Source: CAVPRW01 sp046727435 [NCBI: bacterium] (GTDB lineage: Bacteria > Tectomicrobia > Entotheonellia > J063). Taken from it: a DNA stretch of 5,705 nt. The DNA is taken from positions 1 through 5,705 of the forward strand of contig JBKPCR010000547.1 in NCBI GenBank assembly GCA_046727435.1, written 5' to 3'. Below are positions 2-5,705 of this stretch, in pieces. Each line of letters opens with the position of its first letter. Position 1 is the stretch's first letter. The translations under genes were made by a program, and so were the position numbers. The notes beneath the pieces were generated by a model that was given only the letters and a program-made list of their open reading frames with translations, was not told where the DNA came from and made no database searches.

Positions 2-385
2 CACCATGAATTGAACTTGGGGCAGGCGAGGGGCCCAGATCACCCTGATGGTGCGAGGCCGAAAACCCAGGGGTTAGGGCAAATGTCCTTTATCGTGTCG
101 AACCTGGACGAACTGCGGGGCTTATATCATCGGTTCCAGGCCGAAGACACGCGGATTCTCAGGACGGTCACTCACGGCATTTCGGTAAGCATCTATTTCC
201 TTGACCCTGAGGATAATGTCGGCGAGGTCTATTACAAGACGGGATACAACGTCCGCCAAGGCTTTAGTCGGCCCATCGACCTAGAGAAGCAGTCGAACGA
301 GGAGATCCTGGCGTTTTCCCAATCTTTCGAGGCAACGATTGGCCCCTTCCAGGGTGCCAAGCTGCCAGTTGGAGCCGCCAGCTAG
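2..385 (+). CDS. VOC-superfamily protein (glyoxalase/extradiol dioxygenase fold), C-terminal part
   Basis: The reading frame is open to the left edge, so the gene starts outside the window; the TTG at 11 is only the first possible start codon here and is unlikely to be real. The first residues, HHELNL, resemble the DxEHHR-type strand that precedes the second module of extradiol-type VOC proteins. A full beta-alpha-beta-beta-beta module follows: GLGQMSFIV, the NLDELRGLY helix, VTHGISVSIYF and DPEDNVGEVYY. In this family metal ligands lie at the first strand (His or Gln), the HG motif and the Glu of the last strand. Here they would be Gln (codon 80-82), His (173-175) and Glu (224-226), a Q-H-E set rather than the usual H-H-E of ring-cleaving dioxygenases. 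The role is probably a metal-dependent dioxygenase or lyase acting on an aromatic or other small organic substrate; the exact reaction cannot be assigned. The neighbouring flavin monooxygenase supports a catabolic role. The family call is firm; the function is not. Confidence 0.8.
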   Translation, partial: HHELNLGQARGPDHPDGARPKTQGLGQMSFIVSNLDELRGLYHRFQAEDTRILRTVTHGISVSIYFLDPEDNVGEVYYKTGYNVRQGFSRPIDLEKQSNEEILAFSQSFEATIGPFQGAKLPVGAAS

Positions 386-541: not shown

Positions 542-1612
542 ATGTCAACGCTAGCGTTTGGAATCTGGGATGCTTTCGGTGCATACGAAGTGGCGAGCTT
601 TCCTGTGCAGGCTGACATCTATGAGCAGCACATCCGTGAGGTCCAACTGGCCGAGGAATTGGGCTACCGCTACTATTTCATCATCGAGCACCAGAATTCC
701 CCGGTGGGGCAGATCACCGCCCCCAGTGTATACCTGACCGCGGTGGCCAGAGAGACGAGCCGCATCCGCATGGGGGTGATGATCTATCAGTTGCCCTTTC
801 ATAATCCGATGCGCCTGGCGCAGGAGGCGGCTATGCTTGACCATCTGTCCCATGGCCGACTGGAGTTTGGGGCCGGCCTCGGGACACTCGAGCACGAGTT
901 CATGCGCTGGACCATCCCATACGATGAGCGCCGGGAGATGTCCACCGAGGCGTTAGAGATCATCCTCAAGGCGTGGACGGAGGAGAGTGTCACCTATGCG
1001 GGTAAGTACTGGCAGTTCGATGAGGCTTTGCCCGTGCCGAAACCCTATCAAAAGCCCCATCCTCCCGTCTGGTTCGCCGCGCATAGTCCCACGTCGCTGG
1101 AATACGCCGCACGCCATAACTTCCATGTGTCGCAGAACCTGGATGTCGACGAGGTAATCGCCGAAAAGTTTGAGCTGTACCGGAGTATCTGGCACCAGTG
1201 CGGCCATACAGGGTCGATGCCCCATACCTTCCTGATGCGCGCAGTGCACGTGGCGGAGACGGACGAGATCGCCAGATCTGAAGCGGAGCCCCCAATCCTA
1301 AGGGCGGACCGATTGGGTATCGAACCAGTCACCAGGACACGCATCGGTTTCAAAGGCAATCCCGATACTGTCGTCCGCAGCGCACGCGCCCGCGGCACAC
1401 GGGAGCAAAGGGCCTCATACGACTGGTGGATCGACAGCGGCGTGGCTGTGATCGGAAGCCCGGAGACGGTCCGCCGCAAGCTGGTCGAACAACAAGCACG
1501 TTGCGGATACGACGTATTTTGTGCCAACCATCGGTTTGGGGGGATGCCCCTGGAGCAGTCGTTGAAGTCTCTAAAGCTCTTCGGAGAAGAGGTGATTCCA
1601 GCGTTTGCCTAA
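542..1612 (+). CDS. Luciferase-like (LLM class) flavin/F420-dependent monooxygenase
   Basis: This 356-residue protein matches the usual length (about 340-370) of bacterial luciferase-like TIM-barrel oxidoreductases (Pfam PF00296 family). Visible family features are the N-terminal strand (residues 4-10), AEELGYRYYFIIEHQ (37-51) with the conserved EH pair at 49-50, RIRMGVMIYQLPFHNPMRLA (74-93), and EAAMLDHLSHGRLEFGAGLG (95-114). PKPYQKPHPPVWFAA (166-180) precedes the variable region. Near the C-terminus come the GSPETVRRKL helix and a final LKLFGEEVIPAF segment, both typical. Such enzymes are cytoplasmic and use reduced FMN (or F420) from a separate reductase, with O2, for oxygenation or desulfonation of small organic molecules. 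The substrate cannot be read from sequence. No flavin reductase is in the window. The flanking VOC protein, NMT1-like protein and HAAT transporter suggest breakdown of an imported compound. No truncation or frameshift is visible. Cofactor choice (FMN or F420) is undecided. Confidence 0.93.
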   Translation: MSTLAFGIWDAFGAYEVASFPVQADIYEQHIREVQLAEELGYRYYFIIEHQNSPVGQITAPSVYLTAVARETSRIRMGVMIYQLPFHNPMRLAQEAAMLDHLSHGRLEFGAGLGTLEHEFMRWTIPYDERREMSTEALEIILKAWTEESVTYAGKYWQFDEALPVPKPYQKPHPPVWFAAHSPTSLEYAARHNFHVSQNLDVDEVIAEKFELYRSIWHQCGHTGSMPHTFLMRAVHVAETDEIARSEAEPPILRADRLGIEPVTRTRIGFKGNPDTVVRSARARGTREQRASYDWWIDSGVAVIGSPETVRRKLVEQQARCGYDVFCANHRFGGMPLEQSLKSLKLFGEEVIPAFA

Positions 1613-1769: not shown

Positions 1770-1776
1770 AAGGAGG
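1770..1776 (+). promoter_or_regulatory. Ribosome binding site AAGGAGG of the NMT1-like gene
   Basis: This perfect Shine-Dalgarno sequence lies 5 bases before the ATG at 1782 and 8 before the ATG at 1785. It decides the start against the longer open frame reaching back to 1605, whose extra residues resemble no domain. An intact, strong site argues that the gene was recently, or still is, expressed. Confidence 0.85.
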
Positions 1777-1781
1777 GAGAA

Positions 1782-2003
1782 ATGATGAAAAAAGTCGTGA
1801 GTGAAATCAGTGGCACCGTGTTCAGCCTGCCCTGGCTGATCGCCAAGGACCATGGGCTCTTTGAGGCTGAAGGTATTGATATGGAGTTCGTCCGGGCTCG
1901 CCCCAGTGGTGTGGTGACGCATACGGAAGACCCCTCAGAGGTCAACCCTATCCTCGGCCATGTGGCCTTTGAGGAAGCACGAGTGTCCATTTATCGGGCC
2001 TGA
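1782..2003 (+). CDS. N-terminal piece of the NMT1-like protein as conventionally translated (73 aa)
   Basis: If TGA acts as a stop, ribosomes starting at the strong AAGGAGG site would make only this 73-residue fragment, ending SIYRA. It contains the first beta-alpha unit of lobe I (residues 11-37) and a basic/acidic stretch, but not enough to form a binding lobe, so it is unlikely to function alone. The ATG at 1785 is an equally plausible start. Listed so the physical reading frame is recorded; the preferred reading is the full interrupted gene. Confidence 0.4.
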   Translation: MMKKVVSEISGTVFSLPWLIAKDHGLFEAEGIDMEFVRARPSGVVTHTEDPSEVNPILGHVAFEEARVSIYRA

Positions 2004-2028
2004 GAAGAAGGACAGGTCCGGCGGGCCT
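2001..2028 (+). other. In-frame TGA followed by a short SECIS-like hairpin
   Basis: TGA at 2001-2003 sits between YRA and EEGQ codons. AGGTCC (2014-2019) pairs with GGGCCT (2023-2028): six pairs including one U-G, with loop GGC. The apical loop starts 16 bases after the TGA and begins with G. As I recall it, the permissive bacterial SECIS pattern asks for a short upper stem, a G among the first two loop bases, and a loop 16-37 bases from the UGA, so this fits at the lower limit. Hairpins this small are common by chance in GC-rich coding DNA, and the GGU often seen in SECIS loops lies in the stem here. Selenocysteine decoding is a hypothesis only. Confidence 0.3.
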
Positions 2029-2072
2029 TTGAGAGCAAGCAGGGAGCGAAGATCATTGCCCTCCGTTCTGCG

Positions 2073-2711
2073 GTGGTGAGCCAGGCGATCATGGTGCGTC
2101 CAGACTCGCCGCACAACTATCCCGGGACGCTGGGGCATCGACCGATCGCCGTACAGTTTCATGCCGGTTCGCATTACGTGGCCCTCCGGTTGCTCGAGGG
2201 TTACCTCCCCAACGAGAAGATTAAATTGGTCCACTACGGCTCACCGCAACAGCGCTTCGAGGCGATGTGGAACGGTGAGGTCGACGCCTGTGTGGTGATG
2301 GAACCCTGGATTGCCCTGGGAGAAAAGCTGGGTTGCAAGGCCGTCTGTGAGGGGCACTACCTGGGCGCCGAAAACGCCAGCGACGACATGGACGAGGCAA
2401 CCTTCGTCGCCATTAACCGGGCCGTCGCCAAAGCCGTGGACATGTTGAACGCCGACAAGCGGCAGTATCTGCACTATCTCATCGATGATCCACGCCATGC
2501 CGCAGCCCTTGCCCAGTATGGCGGTCTCACTCCAGAAGATTTTCACCTCCCCCGCCTGCGATACTCGTACACCACGCCGTACACCGACGAGATCGTGGAG
2601 GACACCTACCACTGGATGGTACGCTGGGGTTTGCTCAACGGCGCTGCCTGTTCCGCCGACTTGGTGGACAACCGTCTTCCCGAGGCCGCGGCCACGTCAG
2701 CTGATGATTAG
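2073..2711 (+). CDS. C-terminal piece of the NMT1-like protein, possible restart ORF (212 aa)
   Basis: GTG at 2073 is the first usual start codon after the TGA in this frame, giving 212 residues that hold most of the fold: MVRPDSP, the FHAGSHYVALRLLEGYL segment, DACVVMEPWIALGEKLG, and the C-terminal helices with HYLIDDPRHAAALAQYG and HLPRLRYSYTTPYTDEIVEDTYHWMVRWGL. No convincing ribosome site precedes the GTG (AGGGAG at 2041-2046 is too distant), so an independent gene starting here is doubtful. The piece lacks the first lobe's leading unit, and its continuity with the upstream frame argues that both belong to one original gene. Confidence 0.45.
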   Translation: MVSQAIMVRPDSPHNYPGTLGHRPIAVQFHAGSHYVALRLLEGYLPNEKIKLVHYGSPQQRFEAMWNGEVDACVVMEPWIALGEKLGCKAVCEGHYLGAENASDDMDEATFVAINRAVAKAVDMLNADKRQYLHYLIDDPRHAAALAQYGGLTPEDFHLPRLRYSYTTPYTDEIVEDTYHWMVRWGLLNGAACSADLVDNRLPEAAATSADD

Positions 2712-2784: not shown

Positions 2785-3696
2785 ATGTTGACTGCTCAGA
2801 TAGCCTCGAAGCGGAGGATGCAGGTGTTCTCCTTCGACCTGCTCGTCAACGCGGTCGTCGCCGGAATCCTCCTGGGAGGTTTCTATGCCGCCGTCAGCCT
2901 GGGGATCTCTATGAGCTTCGGCTTGCTGGAGGTGGCGAATATTGCCCATCCCGTCTTCGTCATCGCCGGCGCCTATGCGGCCTACATGATGAATACCGCT
3001 GCTGGTCTTGACCCTGTCCTTACGGGCTTGCTCTTCACGCCTGTCTTCTATGTCCTAGGGGTAGTCGTCTACCGCATTTACTATGCCAGCTTCGAGAGGA
3101 AAGGAGAGCAGTCCCTACGCGGATTGGTGTTTTTTTTTGGCATCCTCTTCATTATCGAGGTGTCACTGGTCCTGACCTACGGCGTCGATTACCGCCTGGT
3201 TGAGGCTCCCTACATCGGGCGTTCTGTGCTCCTCGGTCCTGTCGGCATCGCGTTGCGCCTCCTGGTGCCGTTCATGGTGGGGTCGGTGTTGACGCTGGCG
3301 CTCCACCTGTTTCTCGGCAAAACGTTCTATGGCAGGGCCATCATGGGGGTTTCGCAAGACGCCCTGGCACTTCGACTCATGGGCGCAGACCCTGTTAGGA
3401 TTAAGACCATTGCCTTCGGCCTCGGCATCGCGACAGCCAGCCTCGCGGGCGCCCTGCTGATCATTATTGCACCCGTTGAGCCCTCGATGGGACGCGAATA
3501 TATCGGCCGGGTCTTCGCCATCACGGTCTTGGGAGGTATGGGGAGCATCGGCGGCACCTTCGTCGCCGCGCTCATCCTCGGGGTGGCAGAAAGCTTAACC
3601 TCTACCTTTTCTGGCCCTTCGTGGGCGTTGGCCGTCTCATTCGGCATCCTGTTGCTTGCCCTGGCCGTCCGCCCCTCAGGCCTCTTCGGGAGATAA
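2785..3696 (+). CDS. livH: Branched-chain amino acid-type ABC transporter permease LivH
   Basis: A 303-residue, strongly hydrophobic inner-membrane protein of the BPD_transp_2 (LivH) family, near the usual 290-310 length. It has the N-terminal LVNAVVAGILLGGFYAAVSLG helix (20-40), SFGLLEVANIAHPVFVIAGAY (44-64; corresponding to the family's N-x-AHG motif, with Pro after His55), and several further membrane segments. The cytoplasmic coupling region GVSQDALALRLMGADPVRIKTIAFGLG (188-214) should contact the ATPases. ITVLGGMGSIGGTF (246-259) and the C-terminal RPSGLFGR are typical. It would pair with LivM to form the channel. The ATG at 2785 has only a weak ribosome site; ATG at 2818 has GGAGG immediately before it, too close to be ideal, but would start nearer the first membrane helix. 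LivM follows after 3 bases. HAAT transporters carry branched-chain amino acids, urea, amides or aromatic acids, so the substrate is not fixed by the family. Confidence 0.93.
   Translation: MLTAQIASKRRMQVFSFDLLVNAVVAGILLGGFYAAVSLGISMSFGLLEVANIAHPVFVIAGAYAAYMMNTAAGLDPVLTGLLFTPVFYVLGVVVYRIYYASFERKGEQSLRGLVFFFGILFIIEVSLVLTYGVDYRLVEAPYIGRSVLLGPVGIALRLLVPFMVGSVLTLALHLFLGKTFYGRAIMGVSQDALALRLMGADPVRIKTIAFGLGIATASLAGALLIIIAPVEPSMGREYIGRVFAITVLGGMGSIGGTFVAALILGVAESLTSTFSGPSWALAVSFGILLLALAVRPSGLFGR
3130..3138 (+). repeat. Nine-T homopolymer run inside livH
   Basis: Nine consecutive T bases encode the Phe run at residues 116-118 in otherwise GC-rich coding sequence. The frame is intact as given. Such a run is a hotspot for polymerase slippage and for sequencing length errors; a change of one base would truncate LivH. 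Confidence 0.6.
3688..3692 (+). promoter_or_regulatory. Ribosome binding site of livM
   Basis: GGGAG, lying in the last codons of livH, is 7 bases before the TTG at 3700. It supports that rare start codon and implies translational coupling between the two permease genes. Confidence 0.6.
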
Positions 3697-3699
3697 TCT

Positions 3700-4638
3700 T
3701 TGCGGTGGACATTGCCTGTGGTGGTCGCCCTCAGCATCGTTGGCGGGGGCATGCTGCTCACAGGCGTGGTGGAGAACCGGTATTTCTATTTCGCCACCTA
3801 TGTGATCCTGCAGTACATTGTGTTGTCCACCGCCTGGAACATCTTGGGAGGCTATACGGGCTATGTGAATTTCGGCACGCCAGCGTTCTTTGCCCTGGGC
3901 GCCTATACCGCTACGTTTCTCATGCTCCTCTGCCAGGCCCCCCTCCTGGTGTCGATACCGACCGGCGGTCTGATCTCTGGCCTGTTGGGTTTGGGGATTG
4001 GCTATCTCACCCTGCGGTTGAAGGGGGTGTTTTTCTCTATCGCTACCCTGGCGTTGACGGTGGTCTTGCAAACCCTGATCATCAACTGGGAGTTCGTCGG
4101 CGGCGCCAAAGGCATCAGCATCATCCGACCGGCGGCTATCCCTTTCTTCAGGAACTATGTGCAATTCCTCTTCGTCGTCATGCTCGGCCTAGCGGTGGGT
4201 TCCCTGGCCATTGCCCGCTGGATTGAGCGCTCCTGGATCGGCCTGGGCCTGGCTGCGATTCGCGACAACGAGGAGGCGGCGGAGTGCATGGGTGTTCCCA
4301 CCCTGAGGCTGAAGCTCTTCGCTGCCGTGGTGAGTGGAGGCTTGATGGGGATGGCTGGGGCGCCGTTTCCCTACCATATCAGCCTCATCGAGCCTCTCTC
4401 CGCCTTCAACCTGGATTATGCCGTGAATAGCCTGGCCATGCCGATGATCGGCGGCACGACCACCTGGGTGGGACCTCTGGTGGGGGCCGTCTTGCTAGGG
4501 ACGGCGCAGCAGGTGGCGACGGTAACCATCTCCTCCGAATTGAACCTGCTGATCGTGGGTGTCGTGCTGGTCGGCTTTGTCATCCTTGCGCCCGACGGCA
4601 TTGTCGGGCTTCTCCAACGGGTGTTGAAGCGGAAGTGA
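3700..4638 (+). CDS. livM: Branched-chain amino acid-type ABC transporter permease LivM
   Basis: A 312-residue inner-membrane protein of the BPD_transp_2 (LivM) family. Diagnostic stretches are LSTAWNILGGYTGYVNFG (42-59) with PAFFALGAYTA (61-71), the loop-helix LRLKGVFFSIATLAL (105-119), and the cytoplasmic coupling segment GLGLAAIRDNEEAAECMGV (181-199), which is the classic LivM region contacting the ATPase. GGTTTWVGPLVGA (251-263) and the final VILAPDGIVGLL complete the family pattern. About eight to ten membrane helices are expected. The start is TTG, chosen because the hydrophobic N-terminal helix begins at once, GGGAG is well placed, and only 3 bases separate it from livH. The end overlaps livG by 4 bases (GTGA), a standard coupling arrangement. 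Function: second half of the transport channel with LivH. Confidence 0.94.
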   Translation: MRWTLPVVVALSIVGGGMLLTGVVENRYFYFATYVILQYIVLSTAWNILGGYTGYVNFGTPAFFALGAYTATFLMLLCQAPLLVSIPTGGLISGLLGLGIGYLTLRLKGVFFSIATLALTVVLQTLIINWEFVGGAKGISIIRPAAIPFFRNYVQFLFVVMLGLAVGSLAIARWIERSWIGLGLAAIRDNEEAAECMGVPTLRLKLFAAVVSGGLMGMAGAPFPYHISLIEPLSAFNLDYAVNSLAMPMIGGTTTWVGPLVGAVLLGTAQQVATVTISSELNLLIVGVVLVGFVILAPDGIVGLLQRVLKRK

Positions 4639-5369
4639 CCCCGATGTCCAGCCCATTGCTCGACGTGCAACATGTGACAAAGCGCTTCGGCGGCTTCCAG
4701 GCGCTCACCGATGTGAGCCTGGAGGTGCACGATGGGGAACGTGTCGGCCTCATCGGGCCGAACGGCTCGGGGAAGACGACACTGATCAACTGCATCGCCG
4801 GTGTATTGCGGATCGATGGGGGCAGGATCCGCTTTCGGGGGACGGATATTACTACCCGTCCGGCCCACCAGCGGACCCGGCTGGGTATCGCCCGGACGTT
4901 CCAGATCCCCAAACCATTTACCAGCATGACGATGCTCGAGAATCTGTGCATTCCCTTGACCTATGTTCGGCCGAGGCAGGTGCATGGCGGCGATATCGCG
5001 TCCGCGGCCATGGCGATCCTCGAGCGTATCGGCCTGGCGAGGAAGGCCCACGTCACCGTCAGCAGCCTGACGCTGATCGAGTTGCGCAAGCTCGAGCTCG
5101 CCCGCGCCATGGCGGCCAGGCCGCTGCTGCTGATCGCCGATGAGGCCATGGCAGGACTCTCCAGCGTCGAGGTGGATGAGATCTTGGCCATTCTGGTCAG
5201 GCTCAACGACGAGGGCATCACCATTATTATGATCGAACACATCATGCGGGCGGTCATGCGCTTTTCGAGTCGGATCGTCGTTCTCGACGCCGGACAAACG
5301 ATCGCTGATGGGACGCCGGAGGACATCCTGCACCATAGCGCTGTGGAGAAAGCTTACCTTGGCACATAG
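4635..5369 (+). CDS. livG: Branched-chain amino acid-type ABC transporter ATPase LivG
   Basis: A 244-residue cytoplasmic ABC ATPase that powers LivHM. Visible motifs: aromatic A-loop region near Phe18, Walker A GPNGSGKTT (41-49), Q-loop Gln90 in RTFQIPKPF, Walker B LLLIADE (164-170, catalytic Glu170), D-loop GLSSVE (174-179) and switch His202 in MIEHIMRAV. ARTFQ and the C-terminal EDILHHSAVEKAYLG tail are typical of LivG. The signature, normally LSGGQ or in LivG often YGxQ, reads LTLIELRK (145-152) with no glycine, although the following LELARAMA helix is normal. I recall LivG relatives with LTL-type degenerate signatures, so this is likely a subfamily trait and not damage. The GTG at 4635 overlaps the livM stop by 4 bases; ATG at 4644, with GGAAG 8 bases upstream, is an alternative giving 241 residues. 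livF overlaps its 3' end. Confidence 0.93.
   Translation: MTPMSSPLLDVQHVTKRFGGFQALTDVSLEVHDGERVGLIGPNGSGKTTLINCIAGVLRIDGGRIRFRGTDITTRPAHQRTRLGIARTFQIPKPFTSMTMLENLCIPLTYVRPRQVHGGDIASAAMAILERIGLARKAHVTVSSLTLIELRKLELARAMAARPLLLIADEAMAGLSSVEVDEILAILVRLNDEGITIIMIEHIMRAVMRFSSRIVVLDAGQTIADGTPEDILHHSAVEKAYLGT
5345..5348 (+). promoter_or_regulatory. Ribosome binding site of livF
   Basis: GGAG inside the last codons of livG lies 10 bases before TTG 5359, supporting that start. The next in-frame start codon (GTG 5407) would cut off the first ABC strand. Confidence 0.5.
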
Positions 5370-5705
5370 AATCGTCCTCCATGATGTCGATGCTGGCTAT
5401 GGCGCTGTGCGGGTGCTCCACCATGTCTCTCTTACGGTCAACGACGGTGAGACGGTCGTGCTGCTGGGTACCAATGGCAACGGCAAGAGCACCCTCATGC
5501 GCTGCATCATGGGCCTGGTACAGGTCGATGCTGGCGAGATCTTTCTGGAGACCGACGGGGAACGGATCAACCTCGTGGGTCTGGCTCCTGAGGCGATCGT
5601 CAACCTTGGCATCACGCTCGTACCCGAGGGTCGCCGGCTCTTTCCGAAGCTCACCGTGGAAGAGAATCTCCTGCTTGGCGCTTATCGGGCTGAAGCGCGC
5701 CCGGA
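5359..5705 (+). CDS. livF: Branched-chain amino acid-type ABC transporter ATPase LivF, N-terminal half
   Basis: The gene runs off the right edge: 115 complete codons of an expected 230-240. The frame begins at TTG 5359 (LAHRIVLHDVDAGYG), overlapping the livG end by 11 bases. Walker A is GTNGNGKST (residues 37-45), and GYGAVRVLHHVSL (13-25) is the usual LivF opening, with Tyr14 as the A-loop aromatic. The Q-loop region reads LVPEGRRLFPKLTVEENLLLGAY, the LivF hallmark in which VPEGR stands where other ABC proteins have Gln. Signature, Walker B and switch His lie beyond the window. It pairs with LivG as the second cytoplasmic ATPase. The Walker A Thr38 where Gly, Pro or Arg is more common is a minor variation. 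Position after livHMG matches standard liv operon order. Confidence 0.92.
   Translation, partial: MAHRIVLHDVDAGYGAVRVLHHVSLTVNDGETVVLLGTNGNGKSTLMRCIMGLVQVDAGEIFLETDGERINLVGLAPEAIVNLGITLVPEGRRLFPKLTVEENLLLGAYRAEARP

What the first reader, a model, noticed from the sequence alone, without database searches (positions are those of the whole stretch)
1782..2711. In-frame TGA splitting an otherwise intact NMT1-like gene: recoding, fresh nonsense mutation or error
Both halves lie in the same frame, sum to a normal family length (about 309 residues), contain no other stop or frameshift, and are preceded by a perfect AAGGAGG site. The TGA lies in a stretch (YRA-TGA-EEGQ) where, from memory and unverified, relatives carry a Cys in an ACEWGQ-like motif. 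TGA is one base from TGC/TGT (Cys), and a Cys/UGA exchange is the classic sign of selenocysteine. A six-pair hairpin with a G-first loop 16 bases downstream sits at the edge of the permissive bacterial SECIS pattern. If real, this would be a selenocysteine in a binding-protein-fold protein, which I do not know of.
Basis: partly seen in the sequence, partly recalled or inferred. Interest (0 to 1): 0.6.

Follow-up and report, generated by a model that had tools for sequence, protein, structure and literature searches.

The report
Selenocysteine in a binding-protein-fold bacterial protein
A bacterial gene that looks broken by a stop signal in its middle is very probably intact: in SAR202-related bacteria the signal is kept in nearly all copies and is apparently read as the rare selenium amino acid selenocysteine, in a protein family not listed among known selenium proteins.

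Summary
The window gene (1782-2711) has one in-frame TGA (2001-2003, residue 74). Of 17 related Chloroflexota loci, all 16 covering residue 74 have TGA there. In 250 genomes of the order, 35 close full-length copies (30 genomes) each have one TGA, at residue 74; one further copy has TAA and a deletion. Distant homologues have Cys: of 79 aligned rows 37 have TGA and 42 Cys. Both sides of the TGA are under purifying selection. A hairpin 16 nt downstream is frozen at synonymous sites in 36 copies apart from one loop base, though it is not unusually stable. The 17 relatives' genomes have selA, selB and selD (17 of 17) and tRNA-Sec (16 of 17); UGA still ends other genes there. The window's own genome is not held. 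The protein has a binding-protein fold (SsuA, Thi5, DszB) and matches neither Sao selenoprotein model. Best reading: a new selenoprotein family, probably a cytosolic enzyme; its chemistry is inferred.

The parts
1770..1776 (+). Shine-Dalgarno-like AAGGAGG
   Evidence: direct reading
1782..2711 (+). selenoprotein gene, NMT1/SsuA-like binding-protein fold, 309 codons with UGA read as Sec at residue 74 (start may be 1785)
2001..2003 (+). in-frame TGA, proposed selenocysteine codon (U74)
   Evidence: TGA in 16 of 16 covering relatives, in 35 of 35 close full-length copies; Cys in distant homologues
2013..2028 (+). 16-nt block invariant in 36 copies except one loop base, holding the proposed bacterial SECIS hairpin: stem 2014-2019/2023-2028, loop 2020-2022 (GGC here, GUC in the other 35)
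2709..2711 (+). terminal stop TAG
   Evidence: terminal stops of the 36 copies: TAG 23, TAA 8, TGA 5
542..1612 (+). neighbour: luciferase-like monooxygenase, 169 nt upstream, same strand; possible functional partner
   Evidence: Pfam PF00296 193 bits; luciferase-like genes lie within 1 kb of the selenoprotein gene in 10 of 31 loci
2785..5703 (+). neighbour: Liv/Urt-type ABC transporter (two permeases, one complete and one cut ATPase); its permeases have no match beside the gene in the relatives examined

Best explanation
The gene encodes a full-length selenoprotein. SelB with Sec-tRNA(Sec) reads the UGA at 2001-2003 as selenocysteine, directed by the hairpin at 2014-2028. The protein has the binding-protein fold of SsuA/THI5/DszB, shows no obvious signal peptide, and carries the motif (Sec/Cys)-E-x-G-xxx-R, invariant in the 79 rows aligned. 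Shown by sequence: conserved UGA, Sec/Cys exchange, hairpin frozen at synonymous sites, selection, sel genes in relatives. Inferred: that Sec is really inserted, that the protein is cytosolic, and that Sec74 is a catalytic nucleophile in the inter-domain cleft. The most likely function is an enzyme (not a transporter subunit) acting on a small organic or organosulfur substrate, perhaps a product of a neighbouring luciferase-like monooxygenase; that last step is a guess at about 0.2-0.3. The stated confidence is for the selenoprotein claim.
For: TGA in 16 of 16 covering loci and in all 35 close full-length copies, in 30 of 250 genomes. 79 rows: 37 TGA, 35 TGC, 7 TGT at position 74, with E75, G77 and R81 79 of 79. 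Tree: 36 Sec rows form one clade, support 100/99. dN/dS 0.04-0.14 downstream of the TGA in 13 pairs, 0.01-0.08 upstream in the 8 pairs where dS was not saturated. Codons +5 to +8: synonymous homozygosity 0.986 against 0.337 expected, the top of 123 runs of four. selA 17/17, selB 17/17, selD 17/17 over the curated cut-offs, tRNA-Sec at 66-68 bits in 16/17 genomes, UCA anticodon in 8 of 8 loci examined. SelD in the same genomes has its own in-frame TGA (17/17), and in both SelD loci folded (L032, L033) a hairpin with a 3-nt GUA or GUU loop, like GUC here. UGA remains a stop: 5 of 36 copies and 4 of 10 neighbour genes end in TGA. Fold: SsuA Z 15.2, THI5 13.0, DszB 11.4. The bacterial SECIS model (G, often followed by G or U, in a small apical loop, 16-37 nt from UGA) was seen in passages of PMC13188914.
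Against: No direct proof of selenium. The window's own genome is not held. The hairpin is not unusually stable; in 45-nt context it is in the minimum-energy fold of 17 of 24 distinct variants (28 of 36 copies), not in the window's own; its stem pairs never vary, so there is no covariation support. The Cys-clade control for synonymous freezing rests on few comparable columns (+6 and +7). Sel genes are common in genomes where only Cys forms were found (selA over the cut-off in 10 of 16, tRNA-Sec in 12 of 16), so their presence is necessary rather than specific. One Sec-gene genome (G609, 1.9 Mb) shows neither selA nor tRNA-Sec. G605 has TAA instead of TGA, in a copy that also lacks about 40 residues in frame. 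The motif is not universal further out: L111-L116 have Cys at the site by the HMM alignment but not the whole motif, and the haloarchaeal L122 reads CKW by eye. The structure model is moderate (pLDDT 64) and poor exactly at residues 56-80, so the place of Sec74 in the cleft is inference.
Confidence: 0.95

Rival explanations
1. Fresh nonsense mutation or pseudogene.
For: One in-frame stop; one relative (G605, L073) does look decayed: TAA at this codon and an in-frame loss of about 40 residues.
Against: The same TGA stands in 35 of 35 close full-length copies; the downstream part is under strong purifying selection.
Confidence: 0.01
2. Sequencing or assembly error in the window.
For: Window reads cannot be inspected.
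Against: Other assemblies, including contigs of 3.1 and 4.4 Mb (L004, L005), have the same TGA.
Confidence: 0.005
3. UGA ends translation and the downstream part is made by re-initiation (for example GTG at 2073), giving a two-chain protein.
For: A 212-aa frame starts at 2073.
Against: The E-x-G-xxx-R right after the UGA, invariant in 79 rows, would be lost; in those rows the position is TGA or Cys only; the synonymous freezing lies just after the UGA; in the Cys homologues it is one open frame.
Confidence: 0.02
4. UGA is read through or reassigned to another amino acid such as Trp.
For: None beyond the open frame.
Against: Homologues have Cys there; UGA still ends other genes in these genomes; tRNA-Sec and SelA/SelB are present.
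Confidence: 0.01
5. A selenoprotein, but a ligand- or metal-binding subunit of the adjacent ABC transporter rather than an enzyme.
For: Binding-protein fold; transporter genes directly downstream in the window; Sao binding-protein selenoproteins exist (PMC13188914).
Against: No obvious N-terminal hydrophobic signal in a crude scan. The transporter is Liv/Urt-type (PF02653), whose partners are normally type I binding proteins (established knowledge, not tested). Its permeases have no match beside the gene in the relatives examined; the only ATPase matches there are 27-30% identical (L013/L142).
Confidence: 0.2

Closest known systems
Cys-containing 'ABC transporter substrate-binding protein' homologues with ACEWG motif (e.g. 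Geminicoccaceae CP122394 = L119, Mesorhizobium NZ_AP023260 = L120)
   Same: 48% and 44% identical in alignment A3, CEWG motif, no obvious signal peptide
   Different: Cys instead of UGA; among Chloroflexota Cys forms no synonymous freezing at the two comparable columns
SaoB / SaoX ABC transporter substrate-binding selenoproteins (NF040727, NF040735)
   Same: selenocysteine in a substrate-binding-type protein (PMC13188914 Table 1)
   Different: no match of any of 17 members to these models at E<=10, HMMER's filters applying; listed Sec motifs CUxxT and UxP versus UExG here
SsuA/TauA sulfonate-binding proteins
   Same: fold (Z 15.2 for SsuA, 12.9 for TauA) and weak sequence match (TIGR01728 21.8 bits)
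   Different: far below the family cut-off (163.5 bits); no obvious signal peptide
THI5 (HMP-P synthase) and DszB (sulfinate desulfinase, catalytic Cys27)
   Same: binding-protein fold used by a cytosolic enzyme; DszB uses a Cys (role recalled; C27S mutant named)
   Different: 12-17% identity in structure alignment; correspondence of Sec74 to their active sites not tested
SelD selenoprotein of the same genomes
   Same: in-frame TGA and, in the two loci folded, a hairpin with a 3-nt G-U loop
   Different: unrelated protein

Membership tests
bacterial selenoprotein | in-frame UGA conserved among orthologues | tested here: met
   16 of 16 covering loci; 35 of 35 close full-length copies; one further copy has TAA plus a deletion
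bacterial selenoprotein | Cys at the same position in other homologues | tested here: met
   42 Cys rows and 37 UGA rows of 79
bacterial selenoprotein | SECIS hairpin: G then G/U in small apical loop, 16-37 nt after UGA | tested here: met
   spacing 16, loop GUC (35) or GGC (window); synonymous sites frozen
bacterial selenoprotein | hairpin stability or covariation beyond chance | tested here: inconclusive
   z -0.06 for the window; hairpin in the 45-nt minimum-energy fold of 17 of 24 distinct variants, not the window's; stem pairs invariant, so no covariation
bacterial selenoprotein | selA, selB, selC, selD in the same genome | tested here: inconclusive
   relatives: selA, selB, selD 17/17, tRNA-Sec 16/17; the window's own genome is not held
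bacterial selenoprotein | selenium in the protein | not testable with these tools
   needs 75Se labelling or mass spectrometry
NMT1-like (Pfam PF13379) | score above gathering cut-off | tested here: not met
   24.5 against 24.7 bits; just below
SsuA family (TIGR01728) | score above curated cut-off | tested here: not met
   21.8 against 163.5 bits
periplasmic-binding-protein fold of the SsuA/THI5 kind | fold | tested here: met
   best Foldseek and VIA-align 2 matches include SsuA, PqqT, THI5, on a model of pLDDT 64
periplasmic solute-binding protein | N-terminal signal peptide | tested here: inconclusive
   crude hydrophobicity scan only: maximum 12-residue mean 0.97-2.02 in 36 rows against 2.49 for one neighbouring binding protein in L119; no dedicated predictor run
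SaoB/SaoX selenoproteins | match to NF040727 / NF040735 | tested here: not met
   no match at E<=10 for any of 17 members, HMMER's filters applying
DszB / THI5 | active-site residues in place | not tested
   fold similarity only

The most novel reading that the evidence does not exclude
A selenocysteine enzyme built on the substrate-binding-protein fold, partner of the expanded luciferase-type monooxygenases of SAR202, using Sec as nucleophile to break down recalcitrant or organosulfur matter in the ocean and in sponges; selenocysteine arose at least twice at the same site in this protein superfamily.
Probability: 0.25. Interest if true: 0.75.

Novelty: new member of a known kind. Interest (0 to 1): 0.6.

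Why it matters
It would add a selenoprotein family to the 119 families/subfamilies compiled in a 2026 review (PMC13188914, Table 1 read), which lists none of this type. Annotation that takes UGA as a stop would cut the gene in two. It points to selenium use by SAR202-related bacteria, a group thought to degrade recalcitrant organic matter (PMC6946804, passages), and marks one residue as the likely catalytic centre of a Cys family annotated only as 'ABC transporter substrate-binding protein' in the plasmid records opened with CEWG.

Tried and rejected
Fresh mutation, error, re-initiation and code reassignment were considered and rejected (see rivals). Covariation of the hairpin: none available, stem pairs invariant. 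Hairpin stability: not significant. Rfam scan of the window at gathering cut-offs: no match. Gene neighbours as a guide to function: shared only among some of the loci; the luciferase-like association is weak because such genes number 45-108 per genome in the six genomes counted. An antisense frame over the gene (403 aa in L001), which clustered across 15 loci, was rejected as coding: it is broken in the window, and the + frame carries the homology and selection. Structure search did not settle the active site, since residues 56-80 are modelled poorly. PDB sequence search with A3 at E<=10 also listed transferrins at E 0.04 or worse, taken as chance.

Literature: no paper describing this family was found. 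Searches: (20 of 308 papers listed; 10 of 135 listed), 49, 69, 70, in open-access PMC papers only. PMC13188914: section 7 parts 1 and 2 with the whole Table 1 and passages. PMC12013277: term search only, no passage with the terms asked.

Rows dropped: one search left out L073 (TAA), L082 (contig end), L015 (does not cover the site), L111-L116 (distant; Cys at the site by the HMM alignment), L117 and L118 (duplicates) and the 16 loci L001-L014, L016, L017, whose genes are in as other loci (list). Of 14 plasmid records with a match four were opened, and only L119 and L120 were seen to have CEWG; the match in L121 starts at residue 137 and does not cover the site. My notebook (and others) speaks of a frameshift in L073; one search shows an in-frame loss instead.

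Full report
Observation. The frame 1782-2711 is open except for a TGA at 2001-2003 and reads as 309 codons when the TGA is taken as a residue. Pfam gives only a sub-threshold NMT1-like match (24.5 against 24.7 bits) and NCBIfam a weak SsuA-family match (21.8 bits, cut-off 163.5).

Conservation of the TGA. A search of genome contigs with the read-through protein (C at 74) gave 17 loci, all titled as Chloroflexi/Chloroflexota, Dehalococcoidia or SAR202 MAGs, 73-81% identical. One of the six peptide patterns required Cys at the site and none required TGA, so the search was not biased towards TGA. All 16 loci that cover residue 74 have TGA exactly there; the 17th (L015) matches from residue 145. 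The read-through alignment shows an invariant YRA-U-EEGQVRRA block. In 250 genomes of the same order, 47 had a match at E<=1e-20. The 35 close full-length copies (539 bits or more, in 30 genomes, five of them second copies) each have one TGA, at position 74, and no other stop. Three further close loci depart: G015 does not cover the site; G601:C126 is a contig end with TGA at 74 and one more TGA; G605 has TAA at 74 and an in-frame loss of about 40 residues, which looks like real decay or an assembly fault.

Sec/Cys exchange. More distant homologues have TGC or TGT at the same place, mostly in an ACEWG- or MCEWG-like motif. In a wide alignment of 79 rows, position 74 is TGA in 37, TGC in 35 and TGT in 7, and E75, G77 and R81 are invariant (dropped rows are listed under Tried and rejected). 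Further out the motif loosens: L111-L116 have Cys at the site by the HMM alignment but not the whole motif, and the haloarchaeal L122 reads CKW by eye. One distant homologue (L038, genome G178, about 30% identical) also has TGA there; the tree places it among Cys forms, so two changes are required, while the 36 window-type rows form one clade with 100/99 support. L038 has a long branch and odd composition, such a gene was found in one of the 16 genomes of its order searched, and its predicted hairpin lacks the G-first loop, so this second origin is less sure. G178 does have selA and tRNA-Sec.

Selection and SECIS. dN/dS downstream of the TGA is 0.04-0.14 in 13 pairs; upstream it is 0.01-0.08 in the 8 pairs where dS is not saturated. 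Among 126 invariant degenerate columns, codons +5 to +8 after the UGA show synonymous homozygosity 0.986 against 0.337 expected, the highest of 123 runs of four, with 0 of 200,000 random sets as extreme; 4 of the 5 columns with one single codon in all 36 rows are +4, +5, +7 and +8. The permutation ignores relatedness, but the comparison is within the same gene and rows. A clade of 29 Cys rows shows no such freezing, but only two columns there (+6, +7; homozygosity 0.59 and 0.49) can be compared. The block +10 to +25 is invariant in 36 copies except for one loop base and holds a hairpin AGGUCC-GUC-GGGCCU, with GGC as loop in the window only, 16 nt after the UGA. This fits the bacterial SECIS model as described in PMC13188914 (passages). 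Against this: the hairpin is not more stable than shuffles; in 45-nt context it is in the minimum-energy fold of 17 of 24 distinct variants (28 of 36 copies), not of the window; some permissive hairpin of 6 pairs follows 28.6% of 7,161 TGA triplets. The exact geometry follows 28 of 7,161, a scan that did not exclude the gene itself, which can account for up to 17 of the 28.

Machinery. In the 17 relatives' genomes: selA 17, selB 17 and selD 17 over curated cut-offs, tRNA-Sec at 66-68 bits in 16 (G009 has only a sub-threshold match). ARAGORN reads a UCA anticodon in 8 of 8 loci examined. The Rfam gathering cut-off alone is not specific here (5 of 14 control genomes over it), so I rely on the high scores. 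selD itself carries one in-frame TGA in all 17, and in the two loci folded a hairpin with a 3-nt GUA or GUU loop. In 14 more genomes with the Sec gene, selA was found in 12 and tRNA-Sec (E<=1e-10) in 10; only G609 lacked both. Sixteen genomes in which only Cys forms were found also often have the machinery (selA over cut-off 10, tRNA-Sec 12), so presence is necessary but not specific. UGA is still a stop: 5 of 36 copies of this gene and 4 of 10 neighbour genes end in TGA. The window's genome is not held, so the machinery there is inferred from relatives. PMC5649159 (passages) notes SelA and SelB co-occurring in the majority of sponge-symbiont bins of various phyla; its SAR202 bins 22 and 87 bear the accession prefixes of L013 and L008.

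What the protein is. AlphaFold2 with 17 rows gave a moderate model (pLDDT 64, pTM 0.68; residues 56-80 poor). Its best solved matches are binding-protein folds: 3qsl Z 15.3, SsuA 15.2, PqqT 14.8, THI5 13.0, MqnD 11.7, DszB 11.4. No strongly hydrophobic N-terminal stretch was seen in a crude scan, unlike the neighbouring binding protein in the Geminicoccaceae locus; no signal-peptide predictor was run. Some proteins of this fold are enzymes (THI5, MqnD, DszB; established knowledge). The permeases of the window's downstream Liv/Urt-type transporter have no match beside the gene in the relatives examined, and the only ATPase matches there are 27-30% identical (L013/L142); such transporters normally use a type I binding protein (established knowledge), so I do not take the protein as its subunit.

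Possible role. A luciferase-like monooxygenase gene lies within 1 kb of the Sec gene in 10 of 31 distinct loci examined (window, L002, L128, L129, L130, L132, L133, L134, L136, L137), and in 14 of 31 within about 3.5 kb; flanks are short in some loci and the genomes are related. Such genes number 45-108 per genome in the six genomes counted, in line with the expansion reported for SAR202 (PMC6946804, passages), so some association is expected by chance. I propose that Sec74 is a catalytic nucleophile at the cleft, perhaps acting on a product of such a monooxygenase, as DszB does after DszA (recalled); this is inference.

Known or new. PMC13188914 Table 1 (read) lists 119 prokaryotic selenoprotein families or subfamilies, including SaoX, SaoB and BtuF as binding-protein types but none of this type; the NCBIfam models for SaoB and SaoX do not match any of 17 members at E<=10. 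Paper searches found no description, within open-access PMC and in the parts of the lists shown. I therefore call it a new selenoprotein family, a new member of a known kind.

Noticed in passing
L038 / L118 / L155 (G178:C194, about 21630-22540): Distant homologue with TGA at the same site (FQGUECGNNRR) inside a Cys group, in a genome that also holds a Cys form, selA and two tRNA-Sec matches; its predicted hairpin lacks a G-first loop. Possible second origin of selenocysteine.
   Followed up: partly
L073 / L143 (G605:C62): Close copy with TAA instead of TGA at residue 74, hairpin intact, and an in-frame loss of about 40 residues; a decaying copy or an assembly fault.
   Followed up: partly
L082 (G601:C126, contig start): Partial copy with TGA at 74 plus an additional in-frame TGA eight codons upstream.
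   Followed up: no
L032, L033 (selD): SelD of these genomes has an in-frame TGA followed by a long hairpin with a 3-nt GUA or GUU loop, so SECIS elements of this lineage may share a 3-nt G-U loop.
   Followed up: partly
window 2-385: 5'-open frame of 127 aa that by eye resembles a VOC/glyoxalase-type C-terminus; no Pfam match at E<=0.001.
   Followed up: no
window 2785-5703: Liv/Urt-type ABC transporter genes (two PF02653 permeases, one complete and one cut ATPase) without a matching type of binding-protein gene seen inside the window.
   Followed up: no
genomes G002, G600, G608, G596, G005, G004: 45-108 luciferase-like monooxygenase matches (E<=1e-15) per genome, in line with the expansion reported for SAR202.
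   Followed up: no
L122 (Natrinema plasmid NZ_CP084470) 4962-7827: Three genes annotated as substrate-binding proteins in tandem, with no transporter permease or ATPase annotated in the stretch shown; suggests that such proteins may be enzymes.
   Followed up: no
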